A model generated the notes under the pieces. That model saw only the letters and a program-made list of their open reading frames with translations, was not told the DNA's origin and searched no databases. Both the position numbers and the translations under genes were made by a program. A stretch of DNA of 64,000 nucleotides. Source: Chaetoderma sp. LZ-2023a (taxonomy: Eukaryota > Mollusca > Caudofoveata > Chaetodermatida > Chaetodermatidae). The stretch lies in contig CM067374.1 in NCBI GenBank assembly GCA_034401795.1, positions 93,526,398-93,590,397 of the forward strand. The letters run 5' to 3'. Positions 42,502 through 63,315 of the stretch are shown one piece after another. Numbering within the stretch: the stretch's first letter is position 1; each line of letters starts with the position of its first letter.

Positions 42502-42590
42502 GCTAAATATTTTGAAAAGAATTTGACTGAAAGTTATTGGTGGATAAGCCACCAACAACTTTCAGTCAAATTCTTTTCAAAATATTCAGC
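42502..42590. repeat. Family A core hairpin, variant with co-varied arms
   Basis: Arms 'TTTTGAAAAGAATTTGACTG' and 'CAGTCAAATTCTTTTCAAAA' pair perfectly although both depart from the consensus (GAAACTAATTT). The tip is 'GTTATTGGTGG/CCACCAACAAC'. Confidence 0.8.
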
Positions 42591-42599
42591 ATGTCTTGA

Positions 42600-43258
42600 C
42601 ATGATCGTTTAACAGACAACATTAGATTCTGATAAACAGCAGAAGAGCTGTTGTCTGTGTTATGTTTACCCAGTGACTAAAATCTCAGCAGCATAACTGA
42701 TAAGTCAAAATATTGAGCGAATTATTTAATACCTTAACAATTACATTGTAAGTTGATATCAGTAGTATGTTGGGCACTGAGGCATTTTTGACACAAGAGA
42801 TGGTAAAGCATCAATAGCCCCATTCCTAATAGATTTACTGAAAATGCAAATTTCTTGGTAACCTTATGTAACTTGTGTGTTAAACTTGTATAATTTAGCA
42901 TGGCATATCAGCTTTAAATAGTAACATGACAACTTCAAAGAGCATGAAAACATGGTTATTCAAGTCATGTGGTATTTTAACATAAATCAGTTGCTCTATT
43001 AAATATAATACAATATCTTTACGAAGGGGGTTTATTTTGTCACCTATCCTAAAAAACACATCCCAAGCCACTGCATTTACTTGGTGTTTTTTAATATATA
43101 ATGCACATTCTTCTTATGTTTCACAATATCTAATCTGTGTACAGTACAAATTGTGTAACCTGTTTTATTTGATTCACAATCAAACATGCTCAAAGGACCG
43201 ATAGACTATTGTAAACAAAAATGTTGTCGGAAATAAGACATATGATTGAAGATAGCCT
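42600..43258. other. AT-rich spacer
   Basis: Nothing recognised. Confidence 0.5.
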
Positions 43259-43485
43259 TAACGCTTCAACACTAAAGATGGCCAAAGATGGCTTGATAGA
43301 TGTCCATTTGCAAGCCAAGAGAAGACTATTTTTGAAAATTTATCACTAGAATGACTGGCTCTGTTATCAAGCCAGTCATTTCAGTGGTAAATTATCAAAA
43401 ATAGTCTTCTGTTGGCCTGTAAATAGACATTAATCAAGATGACTGCATAGGCCAGTTTGGGCCGGCTTGACAATTGTGTTAAACA
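43259..43485. mobile_element. Family B foldback element, copy B10
   Basis: CGCTTCAACACTAAAGATGGCC at left. Hairpin 43317-43412 with 'GACTGGCTCTGTTATCAAGCCAGTC' tip. Right end TTGACAATTGTGTTAAAC. Confidence 0.72.
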
Positions 43486-44599
43486 GTATTACCTCTATAA
43501 GTGCTAGTTCATTTAGTAATGGAAAATCTAAGCTTTAATCTAAAGCACATAATTACTGGTCTACTGTCTTTATAATGAAGTACTTATTGTTAATATAAAT
43601 CTAAATAAATTAATTAAAATTATTGTAATAATTTTGAAGAATGAGTTATTTTAAAATAGTAAATGAATACGTCAGTTTTCTAACTGTACATAATAATTCA
43701 ATTATACATTTATATTGTATCATCATTTATTGCTGTAGTCTTTGCTCCGTAATATATCATGAGCATGTTAAAAATAAATTAACATGAATATCTTGTGTTT
43801 GGGAAAAGCTTCATTATTCCGTCTATAAATAAGTATTAGATGATGGAAATTGTCCAATGCTGAAAACATTTTGTCCTTATTGATTTGAATTTATATTAAA
43901 ATCATTATGATAATGAGAACGGTTCATATAACAAGGCATTTGGCATAGTAAATTAGGGTGTACCATTTTTCAATATTGCGATGCTCGGCTATAAGCATAG
44001 TAAATCATGAACAAGATATGGTGACTTGATGTTGAATATTGTAAAATTACTCTGATTTGAAGTTGCCAGTCAAAGTACTCTTAAAATATTTAGAAGTTTT
44101 ACGTTAACTTTGATTGACACTAATTCCAATGCGTATGTATCCCGATCTCATGACAACTAACCAACCATTCGAGACATCTAACATCGAGATATGTTATATT
44201 GGGCTATTTATGCTTATCTCAATATCCTCTAGAGACATATTTTCACACTTATAGTTATCCTGCAGCTCTGAGCTGGTACTTTAGCTTGATATATTTAGGA
44301 TTCTATTGTTCTTGCAGTCGTGCAAAGCCTAGTGTAAAACGATTCTCGTAACGTGTACTGTTGGCCTCTGACGTAAGCGGATCTACATTAATAGTGCGTA
44401 GTAAGAGTATAGTAGCTAGATTCTAATTATCTTTCCTATGGTAGACATGAACCGTGCTAGCATAGATATTTTTATAACAATTTGACTGATAATTATTTCT
44501 GGCAATAGCAGCAACAACTTTCGTTTAAATTATTTGTGAAATAATCAGCGAAAAATGCAAGTGCTACCAACGCTTTGAAAGCAATTTCACTGAAAGTCC
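43486..44599. other. Spacer with two worn family A cores
   Basis: Degenerate cores at about 44030-44097 and 44455-44550 (TTTATAACAATTTGACTG with CGTTTAAATTATTTGTG). No gene. Confidence 0.45.
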
Positions 44600-44838
44600 T
44601 TGCTCAAGAAAATCTAAATCTGTGATTAGTGAATGCCAATTTCCAGGCCAAAAGAATGTTTTTTGAAAATTTATCATTGAAATAACTGACTCGGTTCTTG
44701 AGTCAGCCATTCTCTGGCTGAAATTTCTCACCGGAACGACTGGCTCGATCGAGTTAGTCATTCCAGTGGTATAGAAATTGACATTTTCTATGAGAAAATT
44801 TAGATTTTCTCGACACAATTTGAAGGTTATAGGGTTAA
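44600..44838. mobile_element. Family B foldback element, copy B11
   Basis: Two hairpin tips in series ('ACTGACTCGGTTCTTGAGTCAGCC', 'ACTGGCTCGATCGAGTTAGTC'), 'GGTTATAGGGTTAA' at right. Confidence 0.68.
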
Positions 44839-45018
44839 TAATAGTTGTCCTGCTATCCACGCGTGATACAGACACATGTACTGTAGATGTCACAATATTG
44901 TTAATACAACTATTCATGACTTATTATAAACCTTAAAAAAGATTTTAAAATAATAAACAATCTTTATTTCCCTGTCATATCCTCTCTCTATTTTTCACCT
45001 TTACCATTTACAGGCTTT

Positions 45019-45257
45019 TGATAACTCTTTCATGACAAAGCCGGCCAGAACCGGCCTCTGTAGTGTTCTTGAGGAATGCCCATTTACAGGCCGAGAAGAC
45101 TACTTTTGGAAATTTACCACTGGAATGGCTGGCTCGATAGCCGAGCCAGTCATTCCAGTGGTAAATTTCCAAAAGTAATCCTCTCTTGGCCTGAAAATGG
45201 ACATTTAATAAGTAAGTATTTTAATCTTTTGAACAAATTTAGTCATTAAAGGGTTAA
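45019..45257. mobile_element. Family B foldback element, copy B12 with co-varied arms
   Basis: Arms 'ACTTTTGGAAATTTACC' and 'GGTAAATTTCCAAAAGT' match each other but not the family consensus (TTTTTGAAAATTT). TTAA right end at 45254-45257. Confidence 0.8.
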
Positions 45258-46062
45258 ACACAAAACCACAGTAAAATTCTTTACATTCTCTGGAATATTA
45301 TATTACATATGTTGAAGTTAGTTTGAATGGAAAGCATTTCTGCCCAAAGCTGCTTTTAGCTGAACACGTTATGCGGGCAGAGGAATGAGAACGGATTCAA
45401 AATAGGGAATGCGCTAAGAATACCGGAACTCATTCTTTCCATGCATCATCACTGATTGGAATGTTTGCGCTTAGACGCAAGATTGAAACCATTTGTGTCG
45501 GGGTTGCAGCACAACAGCCGTCCAACTAAGCTCTCTTGCTCACTGCGTGACTATACACATTCAGGCCTGCGCTGTTATGGTAACCTGTTGAAAACGTTCT
45601 CCATGAGGTTGCCTTAATTTATTTTAAGGGACCTTAAACAGGTTACCGTAATCTGTTGATTTTAGTATGGACATCAATGAGCTTTCTAAGGTCTAGGTTA
45701 CCATATGTCGCCGTAAAAATATATACGGCAACCTATTATGGGTTACTATTGCAAATATTACAGCACAGGCCTGCACATTGTGGTCAAATGCAGTACGTTA
45801 TTCAGATTCGGAATACCAGCTTTCCTATTTACTATATGGTATTATTATGTTATCCTTTTTACATTCTACAGGCTCTATACCACAACAATATTTTTCGGTT
45901 CGGTATGGATCGCTACATGGAATGATCAGCCATTCCGCATCCCACATACCCCATCCAGCATACCCTGTTCATATACATTTATAAGAGAAATAGATCAGCG
46001 TGATCAGACATCTCTACTGTATTCCGCTTTCCGAATTTTGCATCCAGCATACCGAGTCACCT
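45258..46062. other. Spacer
   Basis: Short inverted pieces (TATGGTAACCTGTT at 45574 and CTAGGTTACCATATG at 45692; CAGGTTACCG at 45639) and a local repeat of 'CATCCAGCATACC' (45951, 46041). No gene; overlapping frames at 45656-46064 lack recognisable domains. Confidence 0.45.
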
Positions 46063-46590
46063 AGTGATGGGAATTGGTACTATTTTTGTGATCGATGATC
46101 CATTAATGATTGATCATAACAGGTTTTCATTTTTCACCCATTTTGAATGCCGTAATTATAGCATGTTCAACGATAATTACCCCTTTCAAACAAAGTCACC
46201 CGTATGACAGATTCTTAATAATTTAAGAAATAATCTGTTGACTATTTTGAAACTAATTTGACTGGAAGCTGTTGCTGGCAGCAACAGCTTCCAGTCAAAT
46301 AAGTTTCAAGATATTCAACATGTTATTGGTATGGTTGCTTTGAAATTATCATACTATTTCAGTGCTGAAAGAATTAAGGTCTTAGACTAAAGAGTAATAC
46401 TATATAGTTGTAACAATTAAATTTAAATTATTTTCCAAAAGGTATTCGTTTTCTAGTTTGACCAGTTAAAATATATTAATAAAGTCAATTTAAAAACAAC
46501 CAAAATCGATTTCTGAAATCATGATCGATCGGATGGTTGAACATGCAAACCAATCGATCATCGATCAAATCGATTAATCGGAACAACACT
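46063..46590. mobile_element. hAT-type non-autonomous element with 8-base TSD
   Basis: Flanked by AGTCACCT on both sides (46055-46062, 46591-46598). Ends AGTGATGGGAATTGG and, read inward from the right, AGTGTTGTTCCGATTAATCG. Both halves carry repeated ATCGAT/GATCGATGATC motifs. An 8-base duplication and AGTG ends fit the hAT superfamily. No transposase. It contains a family A core hairpin (46237-46320). Confidence 0.82.
46237..46320. repeat. Family A core hairpin nested in the hAT element
   Basis: 'CTATTTTGAAACTAATTTGACTGG', tip GAAGCTGTTGCTGGCAGCAACAGCTTC, inverse arm ending GATATTCAACA. Confidence 0.78.
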
Positions 46591-46609
46591 AGTCACCTAA
46601 AATCAGCTT

Positions 46610-46989
46610 AATGCAACAACGGTTTCCAATCGAATATATTTCAAAATAGTCAACAGCCTTTCTATAATGCTCATCTGGAAATGTTGAATTGTTTAAGAAT
46701 AATGACACATTTCTAATTGGAAATACAGATGTGAAATGGTCCATTATGAATCGTCTTGATAAAATCTTAGTGGATGATCAGTGGATTTATATAAACAATA
46801 TCAATGTTTAATAAAAATCTCTCTTGTAAATATTCTAATATATAATATAATAATTTCTCAATCACTGTATACAGAACTGCATACAAAAGGAATGTTACAT
46901 GTGATGTCATGAGTTTATGATGTCATGTTTCATACATTGCCAATCAATTCTTATTTAACTACAGCCAACTCAGCTTTAGCTACCATGCT
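46610..46989. other. Spacer with half of a family A core
   Basis: 'GGTTTCCAATCGAATATATTTC...TCAACAGCCTTTCTATA' at 46620-46670 is one arm only. Confidence 0.4.
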
Positions 46990-47203
46990 ATGTGGGCCTA
47001 AAGATGGCCACTAAGTGATATTGTTTATTGAATATCCATGTAGAAGTCAGAAACATATTTTTGGAAATTTAACACTAGAATGACTGACTCGATGACCGAA
47101 CCAGTCATTCAAGTAGAAGATTTTCAAAAAGTCTTCTCTTGGTCTAGAATTGAACATTCACTAATTGAAAATCTTGACAAATCTCAACCGTTAAAGGAAT
47201 AAA
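46990..47203. mobile_element. Family B foldback element, copy B13
   Basis: Hairpin with 'ACTGACTCGATGACCGAACCAGTC' tip, and AACCGTTAAAGGAATAA at right. Confidence 0.65.
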
Positions 47204-47839
47204 GCTTAAAGTTGGATTGTCATGTTAAAGATTCAGTACAGATCAATAAGAATAACATAGTGTTATAATAAATTCTCATTTTTGGTATATTTATTAACAG
47301 TCCAACTATTGAAACTTTAAACAAAACCTGACTGAGTCTTCAGGCGCTAGTTAGAAGGCCGAACATGGCAGGCCTGGGCATCTGTAACTATAATGTGATG
47401 ATACACAAAAACTGTGTTTTCGCAAATGTTATGTTTATCTGTCAAATGTTCAAACCAAGAACGGTCTGCTAACTTCTATGTGGTTACTGAGAAAATCATT
47501 TTCTAACGTACGAGGCATATTAATTAGCCCATTGTTTGCAATAGCAATACCAAGCATGCCAAGCCTCTTAGAAGTTACGGAAAATGGGAATTTATTATTA
47601 ATAATATGTCACTGAATACTAACCAGTATGTGTTAGTATTTAATCTTTTAGTCAAACGATTCATCTTTAATACAGTTCAGTTGACACAGAAAATTTCAAT
47701 TGGTTGGTGATGATGAGTGTTTACATCCGTTATTCATTCACCCCTTTGTCTCATAGAACTGTCATTTCTTGGACCCAAACGGCATGTCATAATGTGAGCC
47801 GGTTTGATTATTTAATATAAATAACAACATTCAATAGCT
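47204..47839. other. Spacer
   Basis: Nothing recognised. Confidence 0.5.
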
Positions 47840-48075
47840 TTAACCCTTTTATGACGAAACAGGCCAAAACCGGCCTCTGTAGTGGTTTTGAGTAATGTTC
47901 ATTTACAGGCCAAGAGAAGACTTTTTGAAAATTTACCACTGAAATGCCTGGCTCGGTAACAGAGCCAGTCATTACAGTGGAAAATTTTCATAAATAGTCT
48001 TCTCTTGGCCTACAAATGGACAAAAATAAGTAAATATTTTAATTTTTTTAATAAATTTAGTCATTAAAGGGTTAA
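47840..48075. mobile_element. Family B foldback element, full-length copy B14
   Basis: TTAA at 47840-47843 and 48072-48075; CCCTTTTATGACGAAAC and TTTAGTCATTAAAGGG ends; strong hairpin. Confidence 0.82.
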
Positions 48076-48257
48076 GACATGCTATAGCTGTAAAGAGAAA
48101 AGGTATCATAAGGTCAGTCTATCAGACACTTTTCTAGCTATTGAGTAAAACTCAATGATGATAATTTATAAAGATGATATGATAAGGTCAGAGTCTAGAG
48201 AAAATCACTTATCCTACTTGCTGTTTCTGTTGGCTGTTAAATATGTACACGCAGTCA

Positions 48258-48448
48258 TGTCTATTATCGATCAAAAATTGGTCTTGGGGAAACATCTAAT
48301 TGCAGACAGGGAATGGTATTAAAAACTTACCACTGAAATGACAGGCTCAGTCATTCCTGCAATAAGTTTTCTAAAATGTATTCTCTTTATCTGCAAATGG
48401 ACATTCCTATACAAAGAAAATAATATTTTCTTGACAATTAGACGGTTA
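48258..48448. mobile_element. Family B foldback element, partial copy B15
   Basis: Hairpin 'TTACCACTGAAATGACAGGC' with 'GCTCAGTCATTCC', right end AGACGGTTAA. Confidence 0.6.
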
Positions 48449-48493
48449 ATTGACCACAAATGTCTTTTGAGGCCAAATATGCAATCTCTAACT

Positions 48494-48724
48494 TTTTAAT
48501 TGACAAGCCAGCCAAAAACAACTTCCAAAGTGATTTTGAGAAATGTCCATTTGCAGACCAAAAAAATTCTCTTTTTGGAAAATTTACAACGAGAATGACT
48601 GGCTCAAAAACAGCAACAATCATTTCATTGGTATATCTAGAAAAAAATCTACTTGTCTGCAAATCTATATTTTCTATCACAAAATTTAGATTTTCTTAAC
48701 CAAATTTGAACAATAAAGGGCTTA
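48494..48724. mobile_element. Family B foldback element, copy B16
   Basis: 'GTCCATTTGCAGACCAAAAAAATTC', 'GAATGACTGGCTC', 'GCAAATCTATATTTTC', ending AATAAAGGGCTTAA. Confidence 0.62.
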
Positions 48725-48965
48725 AATTTTAAACTTTCAATCATCCAATTTATTAAAGAAAATTTAAATTTTCTCATAGAAAATGGCCATTTGCCGGACA
48801 AAAGAAGACTATTTTTGAAATTTCACCACTGGAATGACTGGCTCAGTTATCGAGTTAATCATTCCAGTGGTAAAGTTTCAAACAGTCTTTTTTGTCGAGC
48901 ACATGCCCATTTCTCAAGACAACAGGAGCTGTTTTTTACTAACTTGAGTGATAAAAAGCCTTTTC
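48725..48965. mobile_element. Family B foldback element, copy B17
   Basis: Tandem to B16. Hairpin 'TTTCACCACTGGAATGACTGG' with 'AATCATTCCAGTGGTAAAG'. Confidence 0.65.
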
Positions 48966-49049
48966 GATGACAAATTATCTGTAGAATTTGAAAGCGATTA
49001 CCTGTCTTTAGTGACCACCGGCTGATGATCGATAATCAGGTTGATTCAA

Positions 49050-49400
49050 GTCCCACTTTCACAGGAGAATGCTTAGAAATACACTTGTTAAACGTGTATA
49101 TTTTTAGAGGTTTAAATTGTCTATCTCAATATAATGAAACAAAATAACTCTTAACATATGATAATTTGATTCTATATAAATTATAATTAATTTTTTTAGT
49201 TGTGAAGTTGAATTAGGGATACTACACGTCTCTAATTTTATTTTACAACTTAAATTATTTCAATGTATAAGGAATGAAATCATCATATGTTACGCTTTAT
49301 TTTGTTTCATTGCAGTGAGGTACTTAAGCTAAACCTCAAAAAGTATACTATTTTAACCATTTTACTTTCAAGCATTCTGGTGTGAATGTGCACCTTTAAG
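49050..49400. mobile_element. Family C foldback element, copy C1
   Basis: A third palindromic family. Ordered inverted pairs: TTTTTAGAGGTTTAAATTG with AAGCTAAACCTCAAAAAG, ACATATGATAATTTGATT with AAATCATCATATGT, and a tip CTACACGTCTCTAATT with AATTAGGGATAC. Right end GGTGTGAATGTGCACCTTTAA; left end worn. Same layout at 53777-54130. Confidence 0.72.
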
Positions 49401-49756
49401 ACAGATATGACTATATGACAAAGGTATGTGAATACATGATTGCAAAGCGAGGATTGTAAAATAGACAGAATTTGAAAACATAATTATCCAAAACAAGATC
49501 ACATCCAATTAATAGCTGCCAGTTTAAGTTAGAAATACAGAAATAAATCTTATATGTTTTAGCGGCATGTGTGGATGGTACATTACTTATCATATCATCT
49601 TTATCCTCTTAATGAATGAATGTTAATTCTTCCTGAGATTGAGTTTACATTGCAAATATTTCTGTGAAAACAGTAGATTTAAATCTGATGTTATAAACTA
49701 CCACTGTTTTATTATGATGATGAATGACATTATGATTAATAATTAATCAATATATA

Positions 49757-50323
49757 CTAGCTGCTACTTCCATATTGGTGTTCTACTATATAATATCTAA
49801 CAGCTGTTTCCGTCAAATCCTCATCCTCGTCATCAGCATCAATGTCAGCGTCATTAGAATCTTCTACATGCTTGGATACGGAATTATCAAATTCATCATG
49901 CACGAATGATGCATCTGTGGTCTCGTCACTTTGCATTGCGTGACGATGCTCATGCATGTACGCCGCCTGATCCATGTGGCCATCAGAAACTGGAGATTCA
50001 CTACGACTTGTTCCCTCCGTAAATACACTATCAATGTCTGAGCCTATTCCATCGAGCACAGCGCCCTCAGAAGAGGATTTTGTGACACCATTGTCATGTT
50101 TGGAATGGTATAAGCGGTTCTCAATTTGGATTGTACGTGTTGTGGACACTAAGCTGCAACTACGCCCATTAATACACTGTGAGTAATTAGGTCCTAGAAA
50201 CCAATCGGAACGTTGCCGTAACCTTTCAAGCTGCTTGCGTTTTACAGAATTAAAACGGCTTAAACTTTTTTGCTGCTGGAGCTCTTTTACTTCGTTCAGG
50301 CTGTCTTCTAAAGACTTTGGACG
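49757..50323 (-). CDS. Last coding exon of a multi-exon host gene (exon 4 of 4 seen)
   Basis: Terminal exon, 188 codons plus stop (TAG at 49757-49759). The acceptor tttatctttcttcag lies just upstream (50324-50326) and opens at a codon boundary, matching the phase of the donor at 52485. It encodes a charged, partly coiled-coil start (RPKSLEDSLNEVKELQQQK, SVKRKQLERLRQR), a short aromatic/cysteine stretch (DWFLGPNYSQCINGRSC), a long Ser/Thr/Asp-rich region that looks disordered, and a very acidic tail (DADIDADDEDEDLTE) ending VEHQYGSSS. A polyadenylation signal AATAAA (- strand, plus 49708-49713) follows the stop by about 45 bases. I do not recognise the family. The composition suits a cytoplasmic regulatory tail. 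Confidence 0.72.
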   Translation of the reverse strand, partial: RPKSLEDSLNEVKELQQQKSLSRFNSVKRKQLERLRQRSDWFLGPNYSQCINGRSCSLVSTTRTIQIENRLYHSKHDNGVTKSSSEGAVLDGIGSDIDSVFTEGTSRSESPVSDGHMDQAAYMHEHRHAMQSDETTDASFVHDEFDNSVSKHVEDSNDADIDADDEDEDLTETAVRYYIVEHQYGSSS

Positions 50324-50448
50324 CTGAAGAAAGATAAACATTATTTAATGCTTAATAGAAATATGATAAAACTTACATGTAAATTTTGCTGAACTGTTCT
50401 AATCATTTACATGTATTCATTTCCTTATGATATGATAAACGAGTCATC

Positions 50449-50656
50449 TTAACTCTTTAATTCTTAATTTTGCTAAAGAAATTCTCATAGAAAATGTTCA
50501 TTTGCAGACCAGGACTATTTTTGAAAATTCAATACTAGGATGATTGGCTTGATAACCAAGTCAATCCTTTCAGTGACAAATTTTCAAAAATAATCTCTTG
50601 GTCTGCAAATGGACATTTTTCACTGCAGAGGCTGTTTTGGCCAGCTTGCATGTTAA
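50449..50656. mobile_element. Family B foldback element, copy B18
   Basis: TTAA at 50449-50452 and 50653-50656. Hairpin 'CTAGGATGATTGGCTTGATAACCAAGTCAATCCTTTCAG'. Its right TTAA is also the left TTAA of family D copy D2. Confidence 0.75.
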
Positions 50657-50861
50657 CCCTTATCACTCTGATGTCAATATTCTATCTTTTACTCCGTCAA
50701 TATCAAAGAAACTGGTGTTCATTTTTCAACAATTTTGGTGCAAGATGTTGCTGTCTAAGACACCACCATCTCCCACCAAATTTGTTGAAAAATGAACACC
50801 AGTTAATCTTTTAATTTAATTTGAAAATTAAAAATTTTGACACCAGAGTGGTAAGGGTTAA
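50653..50861. mobile_element. Family D foldback element, copy D2
   Basis: TTAA both ends. CCCTTATCACTCTGATGTC at left, GACACCAGAGTGGTAAGGG at right. Long arms 'AACTGGTGTTCATTTTTC', 'AACAATTTTGGTG' and inverses. Confidence 0.82.
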
Positions 50862-50907
50862 TTAAGGACTAGAATCTTTCTTAAATGCATTTTGAAATAT
50901 TTATTAT

Positions 50908-51065
50908 TTAACCCTTTAATACTCAATCCATCTAAAAATTATCTATGAGAATTTACCATTGGAAGGACTGGCTTGATAACACAGCCAAACAATTCATTGA
51001 AAATTTTTCAAAAATAATTGCTTGGTCTGCAAACAGTTTCCAGTCAAATTAGTTACAAAATATTC
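50908..51065. mobile_element. Family B fragment B19 joined to a family A core arm
   Basis: TTAACCCTTTAATACTCAATCC start, hairpin around 50955-51020, then 'CAGTTTCCAGTCAAATTAG' of family A. Confidence 0.6.
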
Positions 51066-51171
51066 ACCAGAATATCTACCAAATTAAGACTTTTGAACAA
51101 AAACTCGTTTCAGCCCTTGGCTTAGTGGAATTTAACTTAGAGGAACTGTCTTGAGTTTCAAATCAATCTAA

Positions 51172-51539
51172 CTTTCCAGTTTATCCATCAACCTTATGAT
51201 ATCATAATCAACTATGTGACGTGTAGGATGAGGCCATAATCAATAACATCATGAATAATGTACATAAGTTAGTCATGAATGCTTAATTGATGACAGACTA
51301 AGCGTTATTGTATGAATTGTAAGTATTTACTACATAATAAACATGTTGTTGAATATTTTGAAACTAATTTGACTGGACGATGTTGCTGCCTAGTTTCAAA
51401 ACATTCAACAGCTTACCTGTATAGTTTTCTGGAAATTGATATTCAGGGAGTTTAGGGATCGATCAACCCAAACACGGGCAAAGTGTGAGTGGAGCTCAGC
51501 TACAGATGGGCTGGTCATAGCTAAAACTGGATTCCTCAA
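51172..51539 (-). mobile_element. Family A foldback element, copy A15
   Basis: 'CTTTCCAGTTTATCCATCAACC' at left, 'GGTCATAGCTAAAACTGGATTCCTC' at right. The hairpin (51350-51412) lost the inner part of its right arm. Confidence 0.7.
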
Positions 51540-51639
51540 TCAGCCAAGCAGTTTCAGATGGTTAAAGGAGTTTATAAATATAGTGCAACATCCAAGATGT
51601 CCACCGCCAAAATCGACCAATCAGCAACAGTTGAAAAAT

Positions 51640-52260: not shown

Positions 52261-52261
52261 A

Positions 52262-52470: not shown

Positions 52471-52484
52471 AGTTATATACGGAC

Positions 52485-52836: not shown

Positions 52837-52908
52837 TGTTGAATATTTTGGCCGTAATTTGATTGGAAGCCATTGCTGCCAATCAAATTACGGCCAAAAT
52901 ATTCAACA
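52837..52908. repeat. Family A core hairpin, strongly co-varied
   Basis: 29-base arms pair without a mismatch. Both share the changes 'TTTGGCCGTAATTTGATTGG' and 'CCAATCAAATTACGGCCAAA' against the consensus TTTGAAACTAATTTGACTGG. Confidence 0.85.
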
Positions 52909-53000
52909 GGACGTTTTATTTTATTTTTGAAACATTCTAAGTCATTTTTAGCTGTACTGTATGGCTGAAATATACATCAAGATCAGCAAAAAGTTATCAC

Positions 53001-53758: not shown

Positions 53759-53776
53759 TCTGAAACACTCATACAT

Positions 53777-54130: not shown

Positions 54131-55169
54131 TTAATAAATGACAATAGTGTGCGAGGATGGAAACTAAGAAAATTTATCAAATTTCTTTTTCACGAGTGAG
54201 ATGACATACTTACCTCCCTAACACTCTTGATACACTAGTATATCGGCTCTAACTTCAATAATATTCAGAATTAAAAAAAGTTAGGTGCCCCTACTGGGCA
54301 GGTCGAATGTACAGTCATGCCAGACCCCATCTCTGCGCATGCTGGTACTTCCGTTACTAAATATTGGCTGACATAGAAGCAACTATTCAAAAAATCAGGT
54401 CTCCATGGGGATCCTGTTAGGGAGGTAAGTATGTCATCTCACTCGTGAAAAAGAAATTTGATAAATTTTCTTATTTCACATCATGAGAACATACTTATCT
54501 CCCTAACACTCTTGATAAAAGCCGGAATTTGAAAGTAAATTTGGCGGAAGGGAGACAAGGTCCTAAAACCAGTTCACCCTCGAAGAGACTAGCTCTTTGA
54601 ATTTTCAAGATTTAAAACATCTGAAATTGTGTCTGAAAACACAACCAGGAATAGAATTTTGCATCGGATAATCGACCGATGAAGAGATAGACTGAAAAGC
54701 AAATGCGCTTTCCTCCCACCCCCACCCTCTCTTTCTGAGGAAGGTTATGGAAAAACGCTGCTCTAAATGGCTAGCACGTTCTCTAATACTTGAAAAAAGT
54801 ATTACTAGACATTGGAAAAAGAATTGCTTCATTTTAAAAAAACTCTGAAAGAACCACAATTAAGAGACATTAACCATCACCATATTAAATAATAACATGA
54901 CACAACCAACAAGACAAAAAACAAAATGGTCATATATACTGACCTCTGATGGCTTGAGCACGGAAATCACCTCTTCTCTCTTCCCCCCCTCCCCCAATCC
55001 CCCATGGATGAAGAGAATGTAACCGGAAACAGTAGGGATTCCCTACTAACAAATGTGATATTTGTAAATAGCAGAGGAAAACTAATTACAAACAAGCATT
55101 CTGTAAGTATTGCTTTGCAATACATGTCCCCTACCTGGTGATATAAATCTTTAGAGATAGTCAAAAATT

Positions 55170-55760
55170 TCATTAAAAATTGTCAAAAGCAGCTGAAACT
55201 CGAACTTGATCTGTAACTTCTCATAACATAGCAATAAACCAAGTCTCAGTTATATATGGTGAAGGAGAAGGAAAGTCTTGAAAGCTGATATGTTTGTATT
55301 TCATAAGTCGAAAGGGGACATAATTCAATCAAAAAATGACGCAAACGCCTGAAACTCGAACTTGGTCTGTAATTTCTCATAATAAAGTAATGTCGCAATT
55401 CTCAGTACAATATCTTGAAAGACTGCTAAAGAAAGTGCGGAAAACTAAAAAGTTTGTATTGCATAAGTCGAAAGGGGGCATAACTCCACGAAAAGTTGAC
55501 AAAAATGTCTGAAACGCGAACGTGCTCTGTAACTCCTTATACTAAAGCGATGCACCGATTTTCACCGATCTTGAAGTAGTGCGAAAGTGCGGAAAGCTGA
55601 TATTTTTCGTATTTCTTAAGTCGAAAGGGGGCATAACTCCATCAAAAATTGACGCATACGCCTGAAACTCGAACTTGGTCTGTAACTTCTCATAACAAAG
55701 TAATATACCAATTCTCAGTTGAATACCTTGAAGGACTGCAAAAAAAAGTGCTGAAAACCA
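55170..55760. repeat. Four tandem ~145-base units of a widespread short repeat
   Basis: Each unit runs: CATAAGTCGAAAGGGGGCATAACTCC, ATCAAAAATTGACG, CTGAAACTCGAACTTGGTCTGTAACTTCTCATAA, CAATTCTCAGTT, CTTGAAAGACTGC, AAAGTGCGGAAAACT. Units begin near 55175, 55307, 55462 and 55615. The last unit runs directly into the DIRS reverse transcriptase, so it was inserted or recombined there. Confidence 0.75.
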
Positions 55761-56640
55761 TGTGCGAGTCCAGTGATCCTGAACTCTCGAGTCCACTGAG
55801 TCATGAGAAACAGCTGAATCAGCCACCTGCGCAAGGCCGCCTGAGGAATGACTGGTTCCATTGAAACAATCAGACCTAGCATTCTAAGATAGACTCGTGC
55901 TAGAATATAACGACTGCTGCAAACCAATTGAATGCACGAGAGATTCTCCACTCTCTCTTGGGATAGATAAACATATCCTATCTCCAGTGTTTATCCTATC
56001 TCCAGATCGAAGAACATACCAAGGTAAACAAACTTCTGGGATGGAATTGGCTTTGATTTTTGAAAGTTGATTATCCAGCCTAAATCTGTGAGATTTCGAA
56101 TGGGAGGAAATAAGCATCTTTCAGATCTATTGAAGCTGTCCACATCCCCTTCTCTAACCCCAACAACACCAATTTCATTGTTTCCATTTTGAAACTTGGT
56201 GTGTCTATAAACTTGTTTAGAGGTTTGAGGTTGAGAATTGGTCCCCACCCCATTACGTCCCCCTCCCACCCGCACCCACCCCCCTCCCCGTGTTCTTTGT
56301 CACAAGAAACACGGTTGAATAGAAGCCCGGACAATCTTGCGCCGGTTGAATTGCTTCTTTTAGAATTAGAGATTCTATCTCCTCTTCTATGCACAAACGA
56401 TTGTCTGGATCTCTTGGAATTTGAGTCCAGACCGGTACCAGAGACAGATGCAATGGCGGACCGATTATCCACTCTGGACTGTATCCGCGCAAAAGCCATT
56501 GCAAGACTAGGCAGTCCTGAATTAACCGCTCCCACTCCTGAATATGGAGTCAATCGACCTCCCACTGGTGCACCTAGGATTAGCGGGGTACACATAAATT
56601 TTAGAAGTGGGCGTTTCTCTGGTACGTGTGACAACACCAG
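55740..56640 (-). pseudogene. DIRS reverse transcriptase
   Basis: From 56637 down: SLAMAFARIQSRVDNRSA, then in the next frame IIGPPLHLSLVPVWTQIPRD, EEEIESLILKEAIQPAQDCP and GFYSTVFLVTKN. Then GPILNLKPLNKFIDTPSFKM, MWTASIDLKDAYF (palm Asp), DLGWIINFQKSKPIPSQKFV, YLGMFFDL, and the thumb with LARVYLRMLGLIVSMEPVIP and QAALRRWLIQLFLM. The YLDD box itself falls in a deleted stretch around 56100. Shifts in several places; inactive. Confidence 0.75.
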
Positions 56641-56649
56641 AGTGGTATC

Positions 56650-57680
56650 TGTGGTAACCGAAAATTCTTTAGACCATCAAGCCCGGTTACCACGCGCCGC
56701 TTCCAGCGCCCAGCGCCATGTGCACCCCGGTGCGCAGGCTGCTACCTGGCTGGCTGCGCTTGGAGCGCTGGCTGGCTACAGCAGCACGCTGCTGCTGGCG
56801 TGGCCGGTGAGGTTTCTGAACCTGGCTGGCCTGCTGTCCTCTGACACTGCCAGCACTGCCACGAGCGTACTGCTGTCGAACAGCCAAGGGCTGAACATGC
56901 ACGTGTTCTCTGCGCAACACTTCAAATTGTGCACGCAGCGCCCTCTGGTTGTTGACCAAGTTCACTGTCTCTTGGAGGTGTCGACAACCCTCACCTCCAA
57001 ACAGACCAGGGCCCGCCATCGGTGCTTGCAATAAGCGTGACTTGAGCTCTTGGGACGGGCACAGAATGTCCAGTGCAAATGTGCGCCTCGTCCTCAGTGA
57101 CTTGGTCACCGACCTAGTCACAGCCCAAGGCCAGGTTGATACCATCCAGGATGGCTCATTGGACTGTCACTGGACTAGGCTGCTTGTGAACCGAGGTTGC
57201 TACTAGCCCTGATAGCAGCTGAGGGACATGAGACAGTGCACTGATTGCTGCTCGTGAACTCTCCTCGGTATCACGCAGTGCGGGATTGCTGTGCGCATAG
57301 CACCCGAGCACAGCGCTCCCATGTCAGCACGAGAGCCTGGCCGTGTGTCTTCATCCAAAGCGGCGTACTCGTCCGCGCTCTGTCTGGATGCTAAACCATA
57401 CCGAGTGTACTAACTGGCACTAACTCGACGTCTAGCAACCTCGTGGGAGGGGGGGGGGGGGGGTCGCGAGGCGACCTTTCAGTCTAATTGACTCCTCTGC
57501 CGCAGCGAACATATCTACAATATGCTCTGCATACGGCAGAGATTGAGACGAGGTGGCCAACGGCTTAGCCTGTAACCACGCCCGCGGTTTACTGGCGGCC
57601 GTTTCATCCACGGAGAGCTCTGGTCTGACAGTGAGGAGCCACGCGCATGCATCAGACCAGTCTTCGTCTGTGGCCACCTA
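56650..57680 (-). pseudogene. DIRS gag body
   Basis: 57677-57432 has EDWSDACAWLLTVRPELSVDE. 57145-56687 has SVTKSLRTRRTFALDILCPS, QELKSRLLQAPMAGPGLFGG, EGCRHLQETVNLVNNQRALR and a Gln/Arg-rich tail. Both blocks have counterparts in the DIRS copy at 24 kb, in the same order. GC content is clearly higher than in surrounding DNA. A poly-G run at 57449-57463 breaks the frame. Confidence 0.68.
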
Positions 57681-58393
57681 TGAATTGCCGATGAGCAGCG
57701 GGCCCTCGTCATCTTCAATGGCATTCGCAGGTGGGGCTGTGGAGGAGGCTACAGACGTGCATCGGGCAGGCCGCGCACCAGGGCCGCACTCGTGTGAGGG
57801 TCATAAGCCATACTAGCGCTCTCCGGGTTGTCCGTATAAGATTCCACGGCTAAATGGTATCTTATACAGGCGGCCGTCCGCTCCAAATCGGCCCAAACGT
57901 TGAATCATGAAACCCGCTCCCGAGGGAATGGTACTATAGGTGCGAGCGGCCGCACTCCCCATGAGGGGAGTGTAAACGCTCGCATCCATGACTTCATGTT
58001 CATCCCGTGGACCAAGCAGGTAGGCTTCATCATCATCCTGGTCAGGAAAGTTAGACTCCGGATTAGCAAAGAAAGCTAACCCAGGCTGACCAGGAGAAGG
58101 TTCATAGGCAGATGACGAGGGTACTCCGCGAGTGATCGTGGTCAGACCCGCTGGTCGGGTCCCACCTGATGCTACTCACACCGCTGGATCACCAGGCGAT
58201 GCGAACATCAAGCCTTGGTACAAGTCGGCCAGCCCTGGATCACTGAAACCTTTGTCCGAACTAGGAGGGCATGATCCAGGGATGGGGGCTACCTGCACTG
58301 AGGTCGATGCGCAGGAAGTTGAAACACCTGTACCCGGCAACATGCCGCGAAGCATCAGGTCCTACAAGGTCCTGCGTATCTCACTCACTAACT

Positions 58394-58630
58394 CTACCTT
58401 GAAGGCCTCCAGCTCATTCTTCTCGAAGGCCTTCTTCTTACCCGTCTCCTCACCCTCTTGCCGTGCTCTACCATCATCTTCGCCTGAGAGCAGAAGAATT
58501 CAGAGGCTAGATGGCCCCCCTCTTTACAAATAGCACATTTGTTAGATAGCCTACAATCTGTGCAAGATGGGCAGAGGTGGGGGAAAAATCTAGCCTTAAG
58601 ATGCTTCAGACAAGATAGACATGATGACTT
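58394..58630 (-). pseudogene. DIRS gag, Cys-rich N-terminal part
   Basis: Encodes SSCLSCLKHLKARFFPHLCP, SCTDCRLSNKCAICKEGGHL: a cluster of CxxC pairs that could bind zinc or nucleic acid, followed by a basic Arg-rich run that ends in a stop. The retroelement gag would continue in other frames. Confidence 0.6.
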
Positions 58631-59544
58631 CTGCAAAGGTAGACATACGAAGAGAATGAGTATTTTAGTTTGTTAATTTTGTTACGGTTTAAATATTTTT
58701 TAAAACTGCAGAGAGAAGACAACCACTTTTATTACTGACAACCCCGAAGGGGCCGATGTCTTCATAACAAAATAAGGAATAAAAATCACAGCCAGGGATA
58801 ACATGAGAATGTTAGAAAGAACAGAGAGACTGATCATGACACCCAGTTATCTCTACACATTCATAACATATGATAATGACATCAAGAGATCCTCTTTTTA
58901 AAAAACAAGATTATGACGTCAAGGAAAACTGAAAAAATCTGGCTGATTATGATATCAAACCTCAAAGCAAAAGCCCCTTCAAGGGGAGGAGATATCAGAT
59001 TATGAATGCAAGAAATACCTAGGACTACATACATTCATCACTCAAGAATAATATAATACTATAATTATATATCTGAGCACCCATGCACAACCACAAGAGA
59101 GAATACAGTGCAATAAGGATGGCAGCAAAAATTTATAAAAATTTCAAATAATTAGGTGCCATAACTAATAAACTCCCGTATCCTGAACACAGGTAAACCA
59201 TCCTCTTGTGCAGAAATCATGTCCATACCATCCACCGAGTCTGTAGTCTGATGAAGGGGATGGGACAAAAGGAGGGAGTTATTTTTCATTTTATATCTCT
59301 GACCCGTAGACATATCATATGATAAGTCACAAAAGGGGAAACGTGATCAACCTCTGAGTGAAGACCAAGAGCTCTACCTTCATAAGATGAGCCTGTGGAC
59401 ACAGACACAAGGGATTAGTAGAACTGTGATAATTTAACAAGGATTCCCAGAGCCTAAAAACATGTTAACGCCTGGTCGGCCGCGAATGAAAACCGGTACC
59501 TTATAAATGTTACAAGTCTTAAATAATATATGGAACAATATCAC
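58631..59544 (-). other. Predicted intron of DIRS gag
   Basis: 914 bases, no coding signal, AT-rich in contrast to the GC-richer gag. Confidence 0.4.
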
Positions 59545-59592
59545 CTTAATAGATGATGAGGCAGACTCCTCCGATGCTTTAGATTCAGCCAT
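59545..59592 (-). CDS. Predicted first exon of DIRS gag
   Basis: ATG at 59592-59590 opens MAESKASEESASSSIK, then AAG|GTGATA donor at 59545/59544. The next frame with a good acceptor (ctacctttgcag, CAG at 58633-58631) starts AAG TCA TCA TGT in the same phase. Short, so the call rests on the phase match and on its place just inside the terminal repeat. Confidence 0.45.
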
Positions 59593-59865
59593 AGTGAAAT
59601 GGATGAAAGAAAATGAATGAAAATTCTACAAAATAGAGCTTCAAATTGTTTTCAATGTTGCTTATAAGCCAATATAATAGAAAACGGAAGTGCCAGTATG
59701 CGCATGCGCAGAGGTGGGGGTCTGACATGTGCATCACTGTGTACATTCCACTGCCCAGTAGGGGCACCTAACTTTTTATAATTCTGAATAGTATTGAATT
59801 TAGAGCCGATATACTAGTATATCAAGTGTGTTAGGGAGGTAAGTATGTTCTCATGATGTGGAAAC

Positions 59866-60159
59866 AGCATGGCTGGTATATTTAATTTCAAGATAGCAGC
59901 TAAACCGACATGATATGAAAACTGGATACAGTCAATAATTTATTCCTCAAAGATATAAACTAGTATATAATTGTGTGAAACATTGTATTATTGCATAGGT
60001 GCAAACATTATCATAAAATAGTGTACTGTGAAACATTGTATTATTTTATAGGTGCAAACATAATCGTAAGAGTGTACATTGGGTAAAGGGCGGAACATAT
60101 ACGGTTGTGCGCTAGGAATAAGATAACACCACAAACGTCTAACATCTGAGCACCTTTAC
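59866..60159. other. Intron 2 remainder
   Basis: A short direct repeat 'GTGTGAAACATTGTATTATTNNATAGGTGCAAACAT' occurs twice (59972 and 60028). Confidence 0.6.
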
Positions 60160-60273
60160 CACTTGCATTATTCAATCTCATTTTCCATATTGAAATGGAT
60201 GGATCTGATCTCTCACTTAACTTGCTGGCCAAGTTTTTGCAGATGACATATTCCAAGGTTTGTTTCTCTGGAA
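60160..60273 (-). CDS. Internal exon of the same host gene (exon 2)
   Basis: Acceptor aaatatttagcag (CAG at 60274-60276), donor AGTG|GTAAAG. Phase 1 at both ends. It encodes PEKQTLEYVICKNLASKLSE, RSDPSISIWKMRLNNAS. The acceptor lies at the foot of a family A hairpin (60275-60365), so the sequence just upstream of the exon is repeat-derived. Function not recognised. Confidence 0.6.
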
Positions 60274-60274
60274 C

Positions 60275-60365
60275 TGCTAAATATTTTGAAAACAATTTGA
60301 CTGAAAGTTGTTAGTGGCAAAGGCACCAACAACTTTCAGTCAAATTGTTTTCAAAATATTTGGCA
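60275..60365. repeat. Family A core hairpin at a splice acceptor
   Basis: Perfect arms 'TTTTGAAAACAATTTGACTG' and 'CAGTCAAATTGTTTTCAAAA', tip 'AAAGTTGTTAGTGGC..CACCAACAACTTT'. The foot of the left arm contains the CAG acceptor of exon 2 on the - strand. Confidence 0.82.
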
Positions 60366-60499
60366 TGTTAGGAGTTTTTTCTCATTAATTAATCTAAATA
60401 AATTGTCTGGTGGCTTGTAGCAGTGAGACAGTTGACATTATAATCAAATACATCACTTGTTAGCTGATGTCACACTCAAAATAATGTAGGTGACAGCTG

Positions 60500-60716
60500 A
60501 AAGCGGTAATTGTCCGTTACGAAAGTCTCAGTTAAATAGTTTTAAAATATTCAACAGACTACTTGCATAGTTACCTCGAAATTGGCATTCTTGGAATTCA
60601 GTGTTTAACGTATTAAACTTGATTCAAATGTGTGTACTAAAGGTCAGAGCTTAGTAAGAAATGGGTGGGGCATAGTAAGAAATGGGTGGGGCATAGTAAG
60701 AAATGTTCATTGATGT
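60500..60716 (-). mobile_element. Family A, partial copy A16
   Basis: 'GTCTCAGTTAAATAGTTTTAAAATATTCAACAG', 'TTACCTCGAAATTGGCATTC', then three tandem units of 'GCATAGTAAGAAATGGGTGGG' (60648-60700). Confidence 0.6.
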
Positions 60717-60808
60717 TAATTTTGAAAAGGATGAACTATTGTAAAATTTTGATATACAATGGACACATCTTCCTTGCACAATGTCACACTAGTGAAGTAA
60801 TAACGTCT

Positions 60809-61040
60809 TAACCATTTAGTGGTCAACTTTTGATCATGACAATTAAACTATTTGGTGATCAAATTCGCATTTGCAGGTCAAAAGAAAATTATCTTTGAAA
60901 ATTGACCACTGGAATGACTGGCTCCCTTTCAAACCAATTATTCACGTGTCAAAGGTCTTCTCTTGGCCTGCAAATGGGAATTCGTCCCTACCTCTGTAGA
61001 TGCCATTTTTAGCTGGCTTGGGCAGTATTCAGTGAAGTGC
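60809..61040. mobile_element. Family B foldback element, copy B23
   Basis: TTAACCATTTAGTGGTCAAC start, 'TTGCAGGTCAAAAGAAAATTATC', 'TTGACCACTGGAATGACTGGC', TTGGCCTGCAAATGGGAATTC. Confidence 0.68.
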
Positions 61041-61440
61041 TAAAAATATCATTTGAGAAATGACGTGGGTGTGCCAAATGTAAGGCCTAGTACTAGCTGT
61101 AGGGAATTTTTACTAGCATGGGCCTGCCTAAATAACATTCTCTGTATGATAAAATCCCAAAATGGAATATGTCTGACAGACAGAGTTCTCTCCCTTACCA
61201 TCCTTACACGGGTCAAAACCATGCCTTTCCGCTTCCTCCTGTAGAACCAGTACAAACCATCTCAGTGACTCCTCTCCTATTCATGCAAGAGGCAAAAACA
61301 GTGTGCTATATGGTACAAGGGAAAGTGCACAAATTCACTTTCTATCATGACTGATTGGAAGTATATCTGTGAATGTATTTTCGGAAAATACATGCTAATC
61401 TTTACAGACTAAAAATGACAAGTACTTTTTGATGTAAGGA
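61041..61440. other. Intron 1 spacer
   Basis: Nothing recognised. Confidence 0.5.
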
Positions 61441-61446
61441 ATATTT

Positions 61447-61560
61447 TGTAGAATAGTTGGAAACTAACTTGACTAGGAGCTATTGCTGCCTATGGTGCCA
61501 GCATTCAGTCAAATTATTTTCAAAATATTCAACTGCTTACCTACATAGTTGTCTGGTAAT
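61447..61560. repeat. Family A core hairpin plus right flank
   Basis: 'GTAGAATAGTTGGAAACTAACTTGACTAGGAGC' and 'CATTCAGTCAAATTATTTTC', then 'CTTACCTACATAGTTGTCTGG'. Confidence 0.65.
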
Positions 61561-61679
61561 TAAGACACTGAAACATTAGGGATCAGAGTTAATAAATTTG
61601 AGTCGAAGATACATAGAATTTTAAATCTGACATAAATATGGCTATTACTTCATTGCGATGTTTGACAATCCATAAATGT

Positions 61680-61990
61680 AGAAATTTGTCTAATTTTCTT
61701 GGGTTTTTATTTTCCTGATTTTTGTTTTTAGATCATGCTGAAAGTTAGGCAATCTTCGTGTTCTGTTATGTCCATTCTTGTGTTAACAATTTTGCCAAAT
61801 CGAAACAGCAGTTTATGACATATCTATAGGTCTGGAATTTGATCCTATCTGGATATACTCATTTTTATCCGGATCCCAGCAAACGTCTGGAAACCCTCTT
61901 TCATGATAAGATTCTTTGTTATGTTAAAATTTGAGCCAACTCTGCTCATTAGTATTCGAGCCACAGCTCCGGACATGCACATACGCGCAT
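61680..61990. repeat. Interspersed repeat (copy 2 of the 8.9-kb repeat)
   Basis: Shares block order with 8880-9215. Its tail is a CA/GC-rich ACACGCATGC tract (61975-62020). Confidence 0.5.
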
Positions 61991-62593
61991 GCACGTGCAC
62001 ACACATATGCGCACACATGCATGCAATGCCCTATTCATAAAAATGCACTAATATTAATGCATATGAATTATGAAACAGAAATCATAATCAGTTTGACATC
62101 AAAACTAATGATGAACCACATGTACTCACGTCATATCATATGATCATTCAACTTTTAACAGACGAGCCTAATATTTCAATACCAAAATCAAGAAAATCCA
62201 TTATATACTTGTCTTATCTCAAACATAATTGAAGTATACTGTGTAGTCAGTCATGTTAGAAAGTGTATATCTACCACCATGCCACATAAAAATATAACAT
62301 GTGACACAAACAAAATATCAAAATTAACAACAAATTTAATACAAAATCAACAGGATATAGGTAGAAAACTAAACATAGCACAATAAACTGAATACAGGCA
62401 CACAAAACCAATGCAGAATATACCATGATTTAATGCTAAGGGGAATAACTCCGTCAAATATTAACAAAAAGAGTATGAAACACCGGTATTGCCACTTGAA
62501 CAGAAAGAAACACTGTAATGATCCGTCTATGTTTCAAGATTCATATTGAGTTAAGTTCATGGAAATAGAACTTGGGCTCCATGTTAGAAGGAT
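61991..62593. other. Intron 1 spacer
   Basis: 62430-62560 ('GGGGAATAACTCCGTCAAATATTAAC', 'GAAACACCGG') is a weak relative of the 55.2-kb tandem unit. Nothing else. Confidence 0.4.
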
Positions 62594-62775
62594 TAACCGT
62601 TTAATTGTCAAGAGAAGACTATTTAAAAAAATTTACCACTGGAACGACTGGCTCGATCACTGACCAGTCATTCCAGTGGTAAATTAGAAAAATAGACGTC
62701 TCTTGGCCTTGCAAATGAACATTCAGCTGGTAAAAATTTTAATTTTCTTGACGAATCTTTATTATCACGGGTAAA
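62594..62775. mobile_element. Family B foldback element, copy B24
   Basis: TTAACCGTTTAATTGTCAAG start. Tip 'CCACTGGAACGACTGGCTCGATCACTGACCAGTCATTCCAGTGG'. Confidence 0.72.
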
Positions 62776-62954
62776 TCTATATATTTCTGAATTTGGTACA
62801 AATTCATTCCGTATGTTTGACTTCAAAGAGGTTTCACTAACATGACTAATGGAACATACTTTGTAGTATCCATGGGGAATAGCATTATATTGTCAGGAAA
62901 TTAATCATTTAACCCTTACATTCCAAAAACTTTCCTTATTGAATGTAAAGAATA

Positions 62955-63118
62955 GTCTGTTGAATATTTTGAAACTAATTTGACTGGCACCTGTTGAAGA
63001 CAGCTATACAGGAAAGTTGTTGAATATTTTGAAACTAATTTGGCTGGAATTTGTTGCTGTCATATGCATAGGCAGGAACCGCTCCCAGTTAAATTAGTTT
63101 CAGAATTTTCAACAAAAT
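62955..63118. repeat. Two family A core arms in tandem, one complete hairpin
   Basis: 'GTCTGTTGAATATTTTGAAAC' at 62957 and again 'GTTGTTGAATATTTTGAAAC' at 63016. Only one right arm (63087-63114) follows. Confidence 0.72.
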
Positions 63119-63225
63119 ATTCACACTACATTACGATTAATTTATTGGTCCTAGTAAGCGAAGGTTAACCTCTTCACCGCCAAACCCCTGAAAACCTACA
63201 TTCTTTAAGATATAAAAACTTTTTC

Positions 63226-63315
63226 TGTTCACTATTTTGAAATTAATTTGACTGGAAGTCATTGCTGCCTTAGGCAGCAATGCCTTCCAGTCAAATTAAT
63301 TTCAAAATATTCAAC
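63226..63315. repeat. Family A core hairpin, co-varied arms
   Basis: Arms 'TTTTGAAATTAATTTGACTGG' and 'CCAGTCAAATTAATTTCAAAA' share the same change from consensus. Tip 'CATTGCTGCC TTA GGCAGCAATG'. Confidence 0.85.

What the first reader, a model, noticed from the sequence alone, without database searches (positions are those of the whole stretch)
42502..63315. Family A hairpins whose arms co-vary
At least four core hairpins (42502-42590, 52837-52908, 60275-60365, 63226-63315) differ from the family consensus at the same paired positions in both arms, keeping near-perfect pairing. At 52837-52908 the arm reads TTTGGCCGTAATTTGATTGG instead of TTTGAAACTAATTTGACTGG and the other arm carries the exact complement. 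Independent point mutation should break pairing. Either the arms are copied from each other (cruciform or foldback repair, or a transposition route through a hairpin intermediate) or the structure is selected (for example a transcribed hairpin feeding small RNAs).
Basis: seen in the sequence. Interest (0 to 1): 0.8.

Follow-up and report, generated by a model that had tools for sequence, protein, structure and literature searches.

The report
Hairpin subfamilies born symmetric, not copied
Four small mobile-DNA hairpins whose two arms seemed to change in step turn out to belong to three separate, numerous subfamilies that each started out symmetric; within a subfamily the arms then decay almost independently, so this is mostly ordinary transposon history.

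Summary
In detail: all four hairpins lie where stated, their arms are 91-97% alike over 34 positions, and they differ from the window's Family A consensus at the same positions in both arms. Arm copying or structural selection in these copies is not needed to explain it. Searches of the window's own 2.44 Gb genome place them in three high-copy subfamilies: A2 (42501, 60275), A5 (52837), A6 (63226). In each, the majority arm sequence is the same on both sides (36 of 36 positions) but differs between subfamilies. Against its own subfamily each hairpin keeps at most one symmetric change. Within subfamilies, arm identity is close to that expected from independent decay: A2 .948 vs .943, A5 .858 vs .857 (four copies set aside), A6 .943 vs .937, A1 .906 vs .906. 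A residue remains, significant in A2 and A6: rare changes in both arms number 6 against about 2 expected in 157 copies. Why founders are symmetric is open; template switching between arms in source copies is my favoured, unproven reason. One A1 lineage amplified with unequal arms, so symmetry is not strictly required.

The parts
42501..42591 (+). Flagged hairpin 1, subfamily A2. The element's left end is TTAACTGTCTC with TTAA at 42440-42443; by eye its right flank departs from the subfamily.
   Evidence: private symmetric change 19C>G against A2
60275..60365 (+). Flagged hairpin 2, subfamily A2 (60275-type flanks). By eye the element runs from about 60217 (TTAA) to about 60435 (TTGA where TTAA is usual).
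   Evidence: only symmetric difference from A2 is position 5 G>A, variable in both arms of the subfamily
52837..52908 (+). Flagged hairpin 3, subfamily A5 (arm ...TTTTGGACKTAATTTGATTGG...), short-loop form
   Evidence: private symmetric change 16A>C only
63226..63316 (+). Flagged hairpin 4, subfamily A6 (arm ...GAAATTAATTTGACTGGAAGNCR...)
   Evidence: no symmetric private difference from A6
41806..41897 (+). Ordinary Family A (A1) hairpin inside a ~400-bp element at about 41632-42031; carries T18 and CA35-36 in the left arm only
46236..46320 (+). Further well-paired Family A hairpin (arm identity .91), no symmetric changes from consensus
44463..44549 (+). Decayed relative of A2 (shares 18A, 30A, 34T in both arms; 13 asymmetric differences)
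34603..34643 (-). Single A2-like arm without a detected partner
34095..34177 (+). Family B hairpin with three symmetric changes, inside a TTAACCCTTTAATG-ended element
45098..45180 (+). Family B hairpin with two symmetric changes

Best explanation
Shown: the four hairpins are the centres of short repeated elements from three high-copy subfamilies (A2, A5, A6) that differ from the window's common Family A (A1). In each subfamily the majority sequence of the left arm equals that of the right arm, so a new insertion starts as a near-perfect palindrome carrying the subfamily's own letters in both arms. In the sampled copies the two arms have then diverged almost independently. The apparent co-variation comes from measuring members of several symmetric subfamilies against one consensus. 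Inferred: each founder became symmetric by arm-to-arm copying in the source copy, most simply polymerase template switching inside the hairpin during replication, followed by amplification. This fits the A2 pattern, where the ~44 bp on each side of the dyad are symmetric while the outer flanks match only 42-49 of 68, and it fits both-sided transversions between subfamilies, which cannot pass through a G.U pair.
For: Genome hits cover each flagged hairpin with some or all of the flank asked for: 42501 (2329 first-look candidates, 40 scored, 92-98% besides the window's own copy), 60275 (2238, 40 scored, 88-99%), 52837 (1516, 40 scored, 79-89% in the better orientation), 63226 (3559, 40 scored, 88-92%). 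Majority arm sequence is the same left and right at 36 of 36 positions in A1, A2, A5 and A6, and at all 44 in A2; the arm sequences used for the four differ pairwise at 4-12 of 44 positions. Observed versus independent-decay arm identity: A2 .9478/.9433 (54 copies), A5 .8581/.8569 (34; four copies with another arm type set aside.8617/.8515 with them), A6 .9432/.9370 (38), A1 .9064/.9062 (31). A5 position 18 varies independently in the arms: T/T 8, T/G 5, G/T 6, G/G 6 of 39 including the window copy, the rest other letters. A2 position 5: both arms A in 10 of 54, where I reckon about 8.9 from the column counts. A2 outer flanks: 49 of 68 and 42 of 68 alike, about 7 bp beyond TTAA included.
Against: Residual within-subfamily symmetry is not zero. 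A2.9478 vs .9432, p=.008, symmetric cells 14 vs 9.9, p=.048 (54 copies); p=.024 and .13 with 57 copies. A5 with all 38 genome copies: p=.013 and .037. A6: positions 1-33 .9433 vs .9369, p=.0007, 4 symmetric cells vs 0.78, p=.006; positions 34-36 .667 vs .502, p=.0001. Rare both-arm variants pooled: 6 vs 1.97, Poisson p=.016. 42501 (19C>G) and 52837 (16A>C) each keep a both-arm change that, apart from the duplicate L002 of 42501, no other sampled copy has in both arms. Copies were the best hits to window sequences, not a random sample. The founder mechanism was not observed, and A1 has a lineage amplified with unequal arms (24G in the right arm of 12 of 34 copies, 9 of 31 without near-copies on C17, and in the left arm of none), so symmetry is not obligatory.
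Confidence: 0.88

Rival explanations
1. Ongoing arm-to-arm copying in inserted copies: template switching or cruciform/foldback repair in situ homogenises the arms of individual hairpins.
For: Six rare both-arm variants (3 in A2, 3 in A6, none in A5 or A1) against 1.97 expected, with 296 single-arm ones. A6 copies L126, L101, L134 and L102 carry symmetric changes in positions 1-33 and have 0, 1, 1 and 2 asymmetric differences against a mean of 3.2, as a single copying event would leave. Small but significant identity excess in A2 (p=.008) and A6 (p=.0007). Arm homogenisation of short inverted repeats by template switching is an established process (PMC8604942 abstract and introduction; PMC8794818 abstract and one results section).
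Against: Arm identity exceeds expectation by .006 or less except in A5 with its second arm type included (.010). A1 shows no excess, nor does A5 without that type. One-armed states persist in A1. The copies with private symmetric changes could be young members of unsampled symmetric sub-subfamilies, such as the one seen in A5 (L089, L093).
Confidence: 0.25
2. The hairpin structure is selected, for example as a transcribed precursor of small RNAs, so compensatory changes are kept.
For: Very stable predicted folds, z -12.7 to -15.2 for the four flagged hairpins; any near-perfect palindrome gives this.
Against: No Rfam match at gathering thresholds. Mismatches in 13 oriented Family A copies are 23 G.U, 18 A.C and 34 other (no test run). 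Within-subfamily pairs vary nearly independently. Founder differences include transversions on both sides (18C>A, 40C>G, 43C>G between A1 and A2; 17A>C between A1 and A5), which have no G.U intermediate.
Confidence: 0.05
3. Amplification favours palindromes: copies that happen to be symmetric are mobilised or amplified better, so founders are symmetric without arm copying.
For: All four subfamily arm sequences are symmetric in the core although 20 unflagged close Family A copies in the window have arms only about 81% alike.
Against: A1 copies with 24G in the right arm only number 12 of 34 sampled (9 of 31 without near-copies). A founder with several matched changes in both arms still has to arise first, which double mutation makes very unlikely without copying.
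Confidence: 0.3

Closest known systems
[quoted passage not shown] superfamily names recalled)
   Same: Short, repetitive, high copy number, TTAA at the ends, inverted ends (A2: TTAACYGTCTSNCTGCTG on both sides), source subfamilies with diagnostic changes.
   Different: Nearly the whole A2 element is an imperfect palindrome with a symmetric centre. No autonomous partner or transposase was linked to it here.
Template-switch homogenisation of short inverted repeats (PMC8794818; PMC8604942)
   Same: Both arms acquire the same letters; symmetry is highest next to the dyad; both-sided changes need no intermediate pair.
   Different: Here the symmetric changes are mostly inherited from subfamily founders, not made in each copy; no parent-daughter comparison was possible.
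Foldback and palindromic transposons (for example Tetris, PMC4079207, seen only in a search listing)
   Same: Elements made largely of inverted arms (recalled); tandem hairpin units occur here too (31558-31922).
   Different: Short (~210 bp for A2); relation not tested.

Membership tests
MITE (non-autonomous DNA transposon) | Many dispersed copies with defined boundaries | tested here: met
   1383-3559 first-look candidates per query, 40 scored in each of five searches, on many contigs; boundaries read by eye for A2 and ordinary A
MITE (non-autonomous DNA transposon) | Terminal inverted repeats | tested here: met
   A2: the four flank consensuses begin TTAACYGTCTSNCTGCTG; ordinary A: CAATGGAGGAATCCAG-type ends, read by eye
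MITE (non-autonomous DNA transposon) | Target-site duplication | tested here: inconclusive
   TTAA near both outer ends in 20 of 54 A2 copies and near at least one in 46 of 54; no empty sites examined
piggyBac-like or Kolobok-like TTAA superfamily | Ends shared with an autonomous copy that encodes the matching transposase | not tested
   No autonomous partner was sought; among 9 window frames scanned against Pfam the only transposase match was DDE_Tnp_4 / Plant_tran in one frame
Arm homogenisation acting in inserted copies | Within-copy arm identity above between-copy identity inside one subfamily | tested here: inconclusive
   No excess in A1 (p=.39) or A5 without one arm type (p=.36); small excess in A2 (.005, p=.008) and A6 (.006, p=.0007)
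Structured non-coding RNA or miRNA precursor | Match to a known family, or compensatory changes with tolerated G.U pairs | tested here: not met
   0 Rfam matches at gathering thresholds; 23 G.U vs 18 A.C mismatches, no test run
Structured non-coding RNA or miRNA precursor | Phased small RNAs from the arms | not testable with these tools
   No small-RNA reads available

The most novel reading that the evidence does not exclude
In the lineages that stay active, the palindromic core is repeatedly made symmetric again by arm-to-arm copying before each burst of amplification. Thousands of dispersed hairpin elements then form a genome-scale record of template switching: new letters enter one arm, are copied into the other near the dyad, and are broadcast as a new symmetric subfamily.
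Probability: 0.3. Interest if true: 0.5.

Novelty: new member of a known kind. Interest (0 to 1): 0.3.

Why it matters
It shows how co-variation, the usual sign of selected structure, can arise when members of several symmetric repeat subfamilies are read against one consensus. The remaining question is concrete: several subfamilies of one hairpin core differ at 4-12 positions yet are each symmetric, while the outer flanks of A2 elements are not. That makes these families a usable test bed for how often replication copies one hairpin arm onto the other in an animal-size genome.

Tried and rejected
Rejected: (1) co-variation as a property of close Family A copies: gone once the four flagged copies are removed (20 copies, p=.38), though it stays when four distant relatives are kept (24 hairpins, p=.0004). 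(2) The four-letter block AAAC>GCCG at 52837 as one event: relatives show GACK is the subfamily's own state and only 16A>C is private. (3) 63226 as the arm-copied version of 41806, whose left arm alone has T18 and CA: it belongs to another subfamily, A6, and one-armed CA is an inherited A1 state (left arm 9, right arm 4 which are near-copies on C17, both arms 0, of 34). (4) A hairpin-only mobile unit for 42501 and 60275, my first reading: the genome copies share outer flanks up to TTAA ends. (5) Selection as RNA: see rivals. (6) An exact search for the arm in viral contigs: 0 matches.

Limits: all genome copies are best hits to window sequences. Used, besides the window's own copy and its duplicate: 42501, 26 of 39 listed places (a 40-bp fragment not counted); 60275, 28 of 38; 52837, 39 stretches covering 40 places (of two neighbours in L076 one was used; L073 dropped as the same element as L072, leaving 38); 63226, 39 of 39 (L122 dropped as a near-copy of L112, leaving 38); 41806, 34 of 38 (four C17 places left out as likely local copies; L146, L162, L163 then dropped from the tests, leaving 31). 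Family B was not split into subfamilies, so its signal (.815 vs .792, 59 hairpins, p=.0001; 40 outside the window .813 vs .795, p=.0007) may have the same origin. The mixed set of non-A2 A hairpins also shows a signal (.818 vs .800, 52 hairpins, p=.00025; 31 outside the window .815 vs .797, p=.005) for the same possible reason.
Full report
What was checked. The four hairpins are at the stated coordinates and read as described. Thirty related hairpins were aligned arm by arm in the window; two tandem duplicates were dropped. Over the remaining 28, within-copy arm identity is .815 against .750 between copies (permutation p=.00005), with 43 symmetric non-consensus cells against 14.7 in shuffles. 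Among 24 close copies it is .836 against .793; without the four flagged copies it is .812 against .810, p=.38. Leaving out the four flagged copies but keeping four distant relatives (24 hairpins), it is .792 against .753, p=.0004 (all). So the signal is real, and among close copies it is carried by the flagged ones.

What the elements are. Ordinary Family A copies are repeats of roughly 340-440 bp with inverted ends (read by eye) and the ~91-bp hairpin in the middle. Family B hairpins sit in TTAACCCTTTAATG-ended elements. Nothing in the window matches Rfam at gathering thresholds, and ARAGORN finds no tRNA.

The genome. The window lies in a 2.44 Gb assembly of 2753 contigs. DNA searches with each flagged hairpin and its flanks found high-copy relatives: 42501 (2329 first-look candidates), 60275 (2238), 52837 (1516), 63226 (3559), and the ordinary copy 41806 (1383). 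Forty were scored in each case; the candidate numbers are rough.

A2 (42501 and 60275). In 54 genome copies outside the window and its duplicate, the majority letter is the same in both arms at all 44 positions: TGCTGAATATTTTGAAAACAATTTGACTGAAAGTTGTTGGTGGC. Their outer flanks run to TTAA-bounded inverted ends: TTAA near both outer ends in 20 of 54 and near at least one in 46 of 54; the two outer flanks match only 49 of 68 (42501-type) or 42 of 68 (60275-type), about 7 bp beyond TTAA included. Against this sequence 60275 has one symmetric difference, at a position variable in both arms, and 42501 has one, 19C>G; 19G is seen in the right arm only in L035 and L048 and in the off-target copy L034:405. 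Within is .9478 and between .9432, p=.008, symmetric cells 14 vs 9.9, p=.048 (54 copies); with off-target copies included, 57 copies.943 and .940, p=.024, 14 vs 10.9, p=.13.

A5 (52837). Thirty-nine stretches were fetched. The arm reads TGTTGAATATTTTGGACKTAATTTGATTGG, so three of the four letters of the block at 15-18, and 27T, are subfamily features; only 16A>C is in both arms of the window copy and of no other sampled copy (one arm in 5 of 39). Position 18 is T or G in each arm independently (T/T 8, T/G 5, G/T 6, G/G 6 of 39 with the window copy). Setting aside four copies with a GAACATAATTGG-like arm (L089 and L093 symmetric, L095 left arm only in the alignment, L091 partly), within is .858 and between .856, p=.36, symmetric cells 10 vs 10.9; with them .861 and .851, p=.013, 18 vs 12.1, p=.037.

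A6 (63226). Thirty-nine relatives at 88-92% over the 155-bp query include its flanks. The window copy has no symmetric private difference. Here a residue appears: in positions 1-33 .9433 against .9369, p=.0007, and four symmetric cells against 0.78, p=.006 (L101, L126, L134, L102); in the variable triplet 34-36 within .667 against between .502, p=.0001.

A1 (41806 relatives). Thirty-four copies show lineages with one-armed states: 24G in the right arm of 12 (9 of 31 without near-copies on C17) and the left arm of none; CA at 35-36 in the left arm of 9, the right arm of 4 (near-copies on C17) and both arms of none. Within is .9065 and between .9063 in positions 1-30, p=.39. Such lineages amplified without being made symmetric.

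Pooled. Observed against independent-decay arm identity is .9478/.9433 (A2).8581/.8569 (A5 without the four copies.8617/.8515 with them).9432/.9370 (A6) and .9064/.9062 (A1). Rare variants present in both arms of a copy number 6 (3 in A2, 3 in A6) against 1.97 expected, with 296 in one arm only, over 157 copies (54, 34, 38 and 31), p=.016.

Reading. The co-variation is between subfamilies, each symmetric from its founder, and hardly within them. The founders' symmetry still needs a cause. Subfamily arms differ at 4-12 positions, some by transversions on both sides, which have no G.U intermediate, and full symmetry stops about 45 bp from the dyad in A2. This favours copying of one arm onto the other in source copies. 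Template switching between short inverted repeats does this in yeast genes and leaves matching patterns in RNA genes (PMC8604942, abstract and introduction read; PMC8794818, abstract and one results section read; a word search of the latter's main text for transpos, MITE and repeat element found none). I did not observe such an event, and preferred amplification of symmetric copies remains possible.

Family B and the mixed set of non-A2 hairpins show pooled signals. They were not separated into subfamilies, so they neither add to nor subtract from the conclusion.

Prior work. Six paper searches (25 of 64, 15 of 66, 5 of 5, 12 of 16, 1 of 1 and 1 of 1 papers listed) showed no paper whose title or abstract start describes symmetric subfamilies of a MITE hairpin. 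I read none of those papers beyond the two above, so this is no claim of absence.

Noticed in passing
window 31558-31922: Four head-to-tail 90-bp units, each a Family A hairpin, fused through the GAATGTTTATT flank: a small hairpin satellite in the making.
   Followed up: partly
window 41780-41925, 42480-42610 and 60255-60385 versus G000:C16:93205052-93224033: These stretches have 97-99% copies about 363 kb away on the same contig, so the region may be partly duplicated; no such copy was among those scored for 52837 or 63226.
   Followed up: no
L059-L097 (A5 copies), loop region: Many A5 hairpins have a shortened inner stem; some keep the left-type loop (as at 52837), L094 has its exact inverse and L068 a near-inverse, which looks like loop inversion or alternative deletion at GG/CC.
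   Followed up: no
L011:288 and window 62617-62698: Family B hairpin L011:288 has five symmetric changes, including AAA at 9-11; the window copy at 62617 has AAA in its left arm only.
   Followed up: no
window 12313-15327: LINE-like frames in one register separated by single stop codons: an endonuclease match below the Pfam cut-off and a reverse transcriptase match (RVT_1).
   Followed up: partly
window 29340-30413: DDE_Tnp_4 match (Harbinger-like, name recalled) in the frame 29958-30410; the frame before it, 29340-29942, had no Pfam match.
   Followed up: partly
window 50711-50803: A further hairpin type with TTAACCCTTATCACTCTG-like sequence on both sides, arms distantly like Family A and eight symmetric differences.
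   Followed up: no
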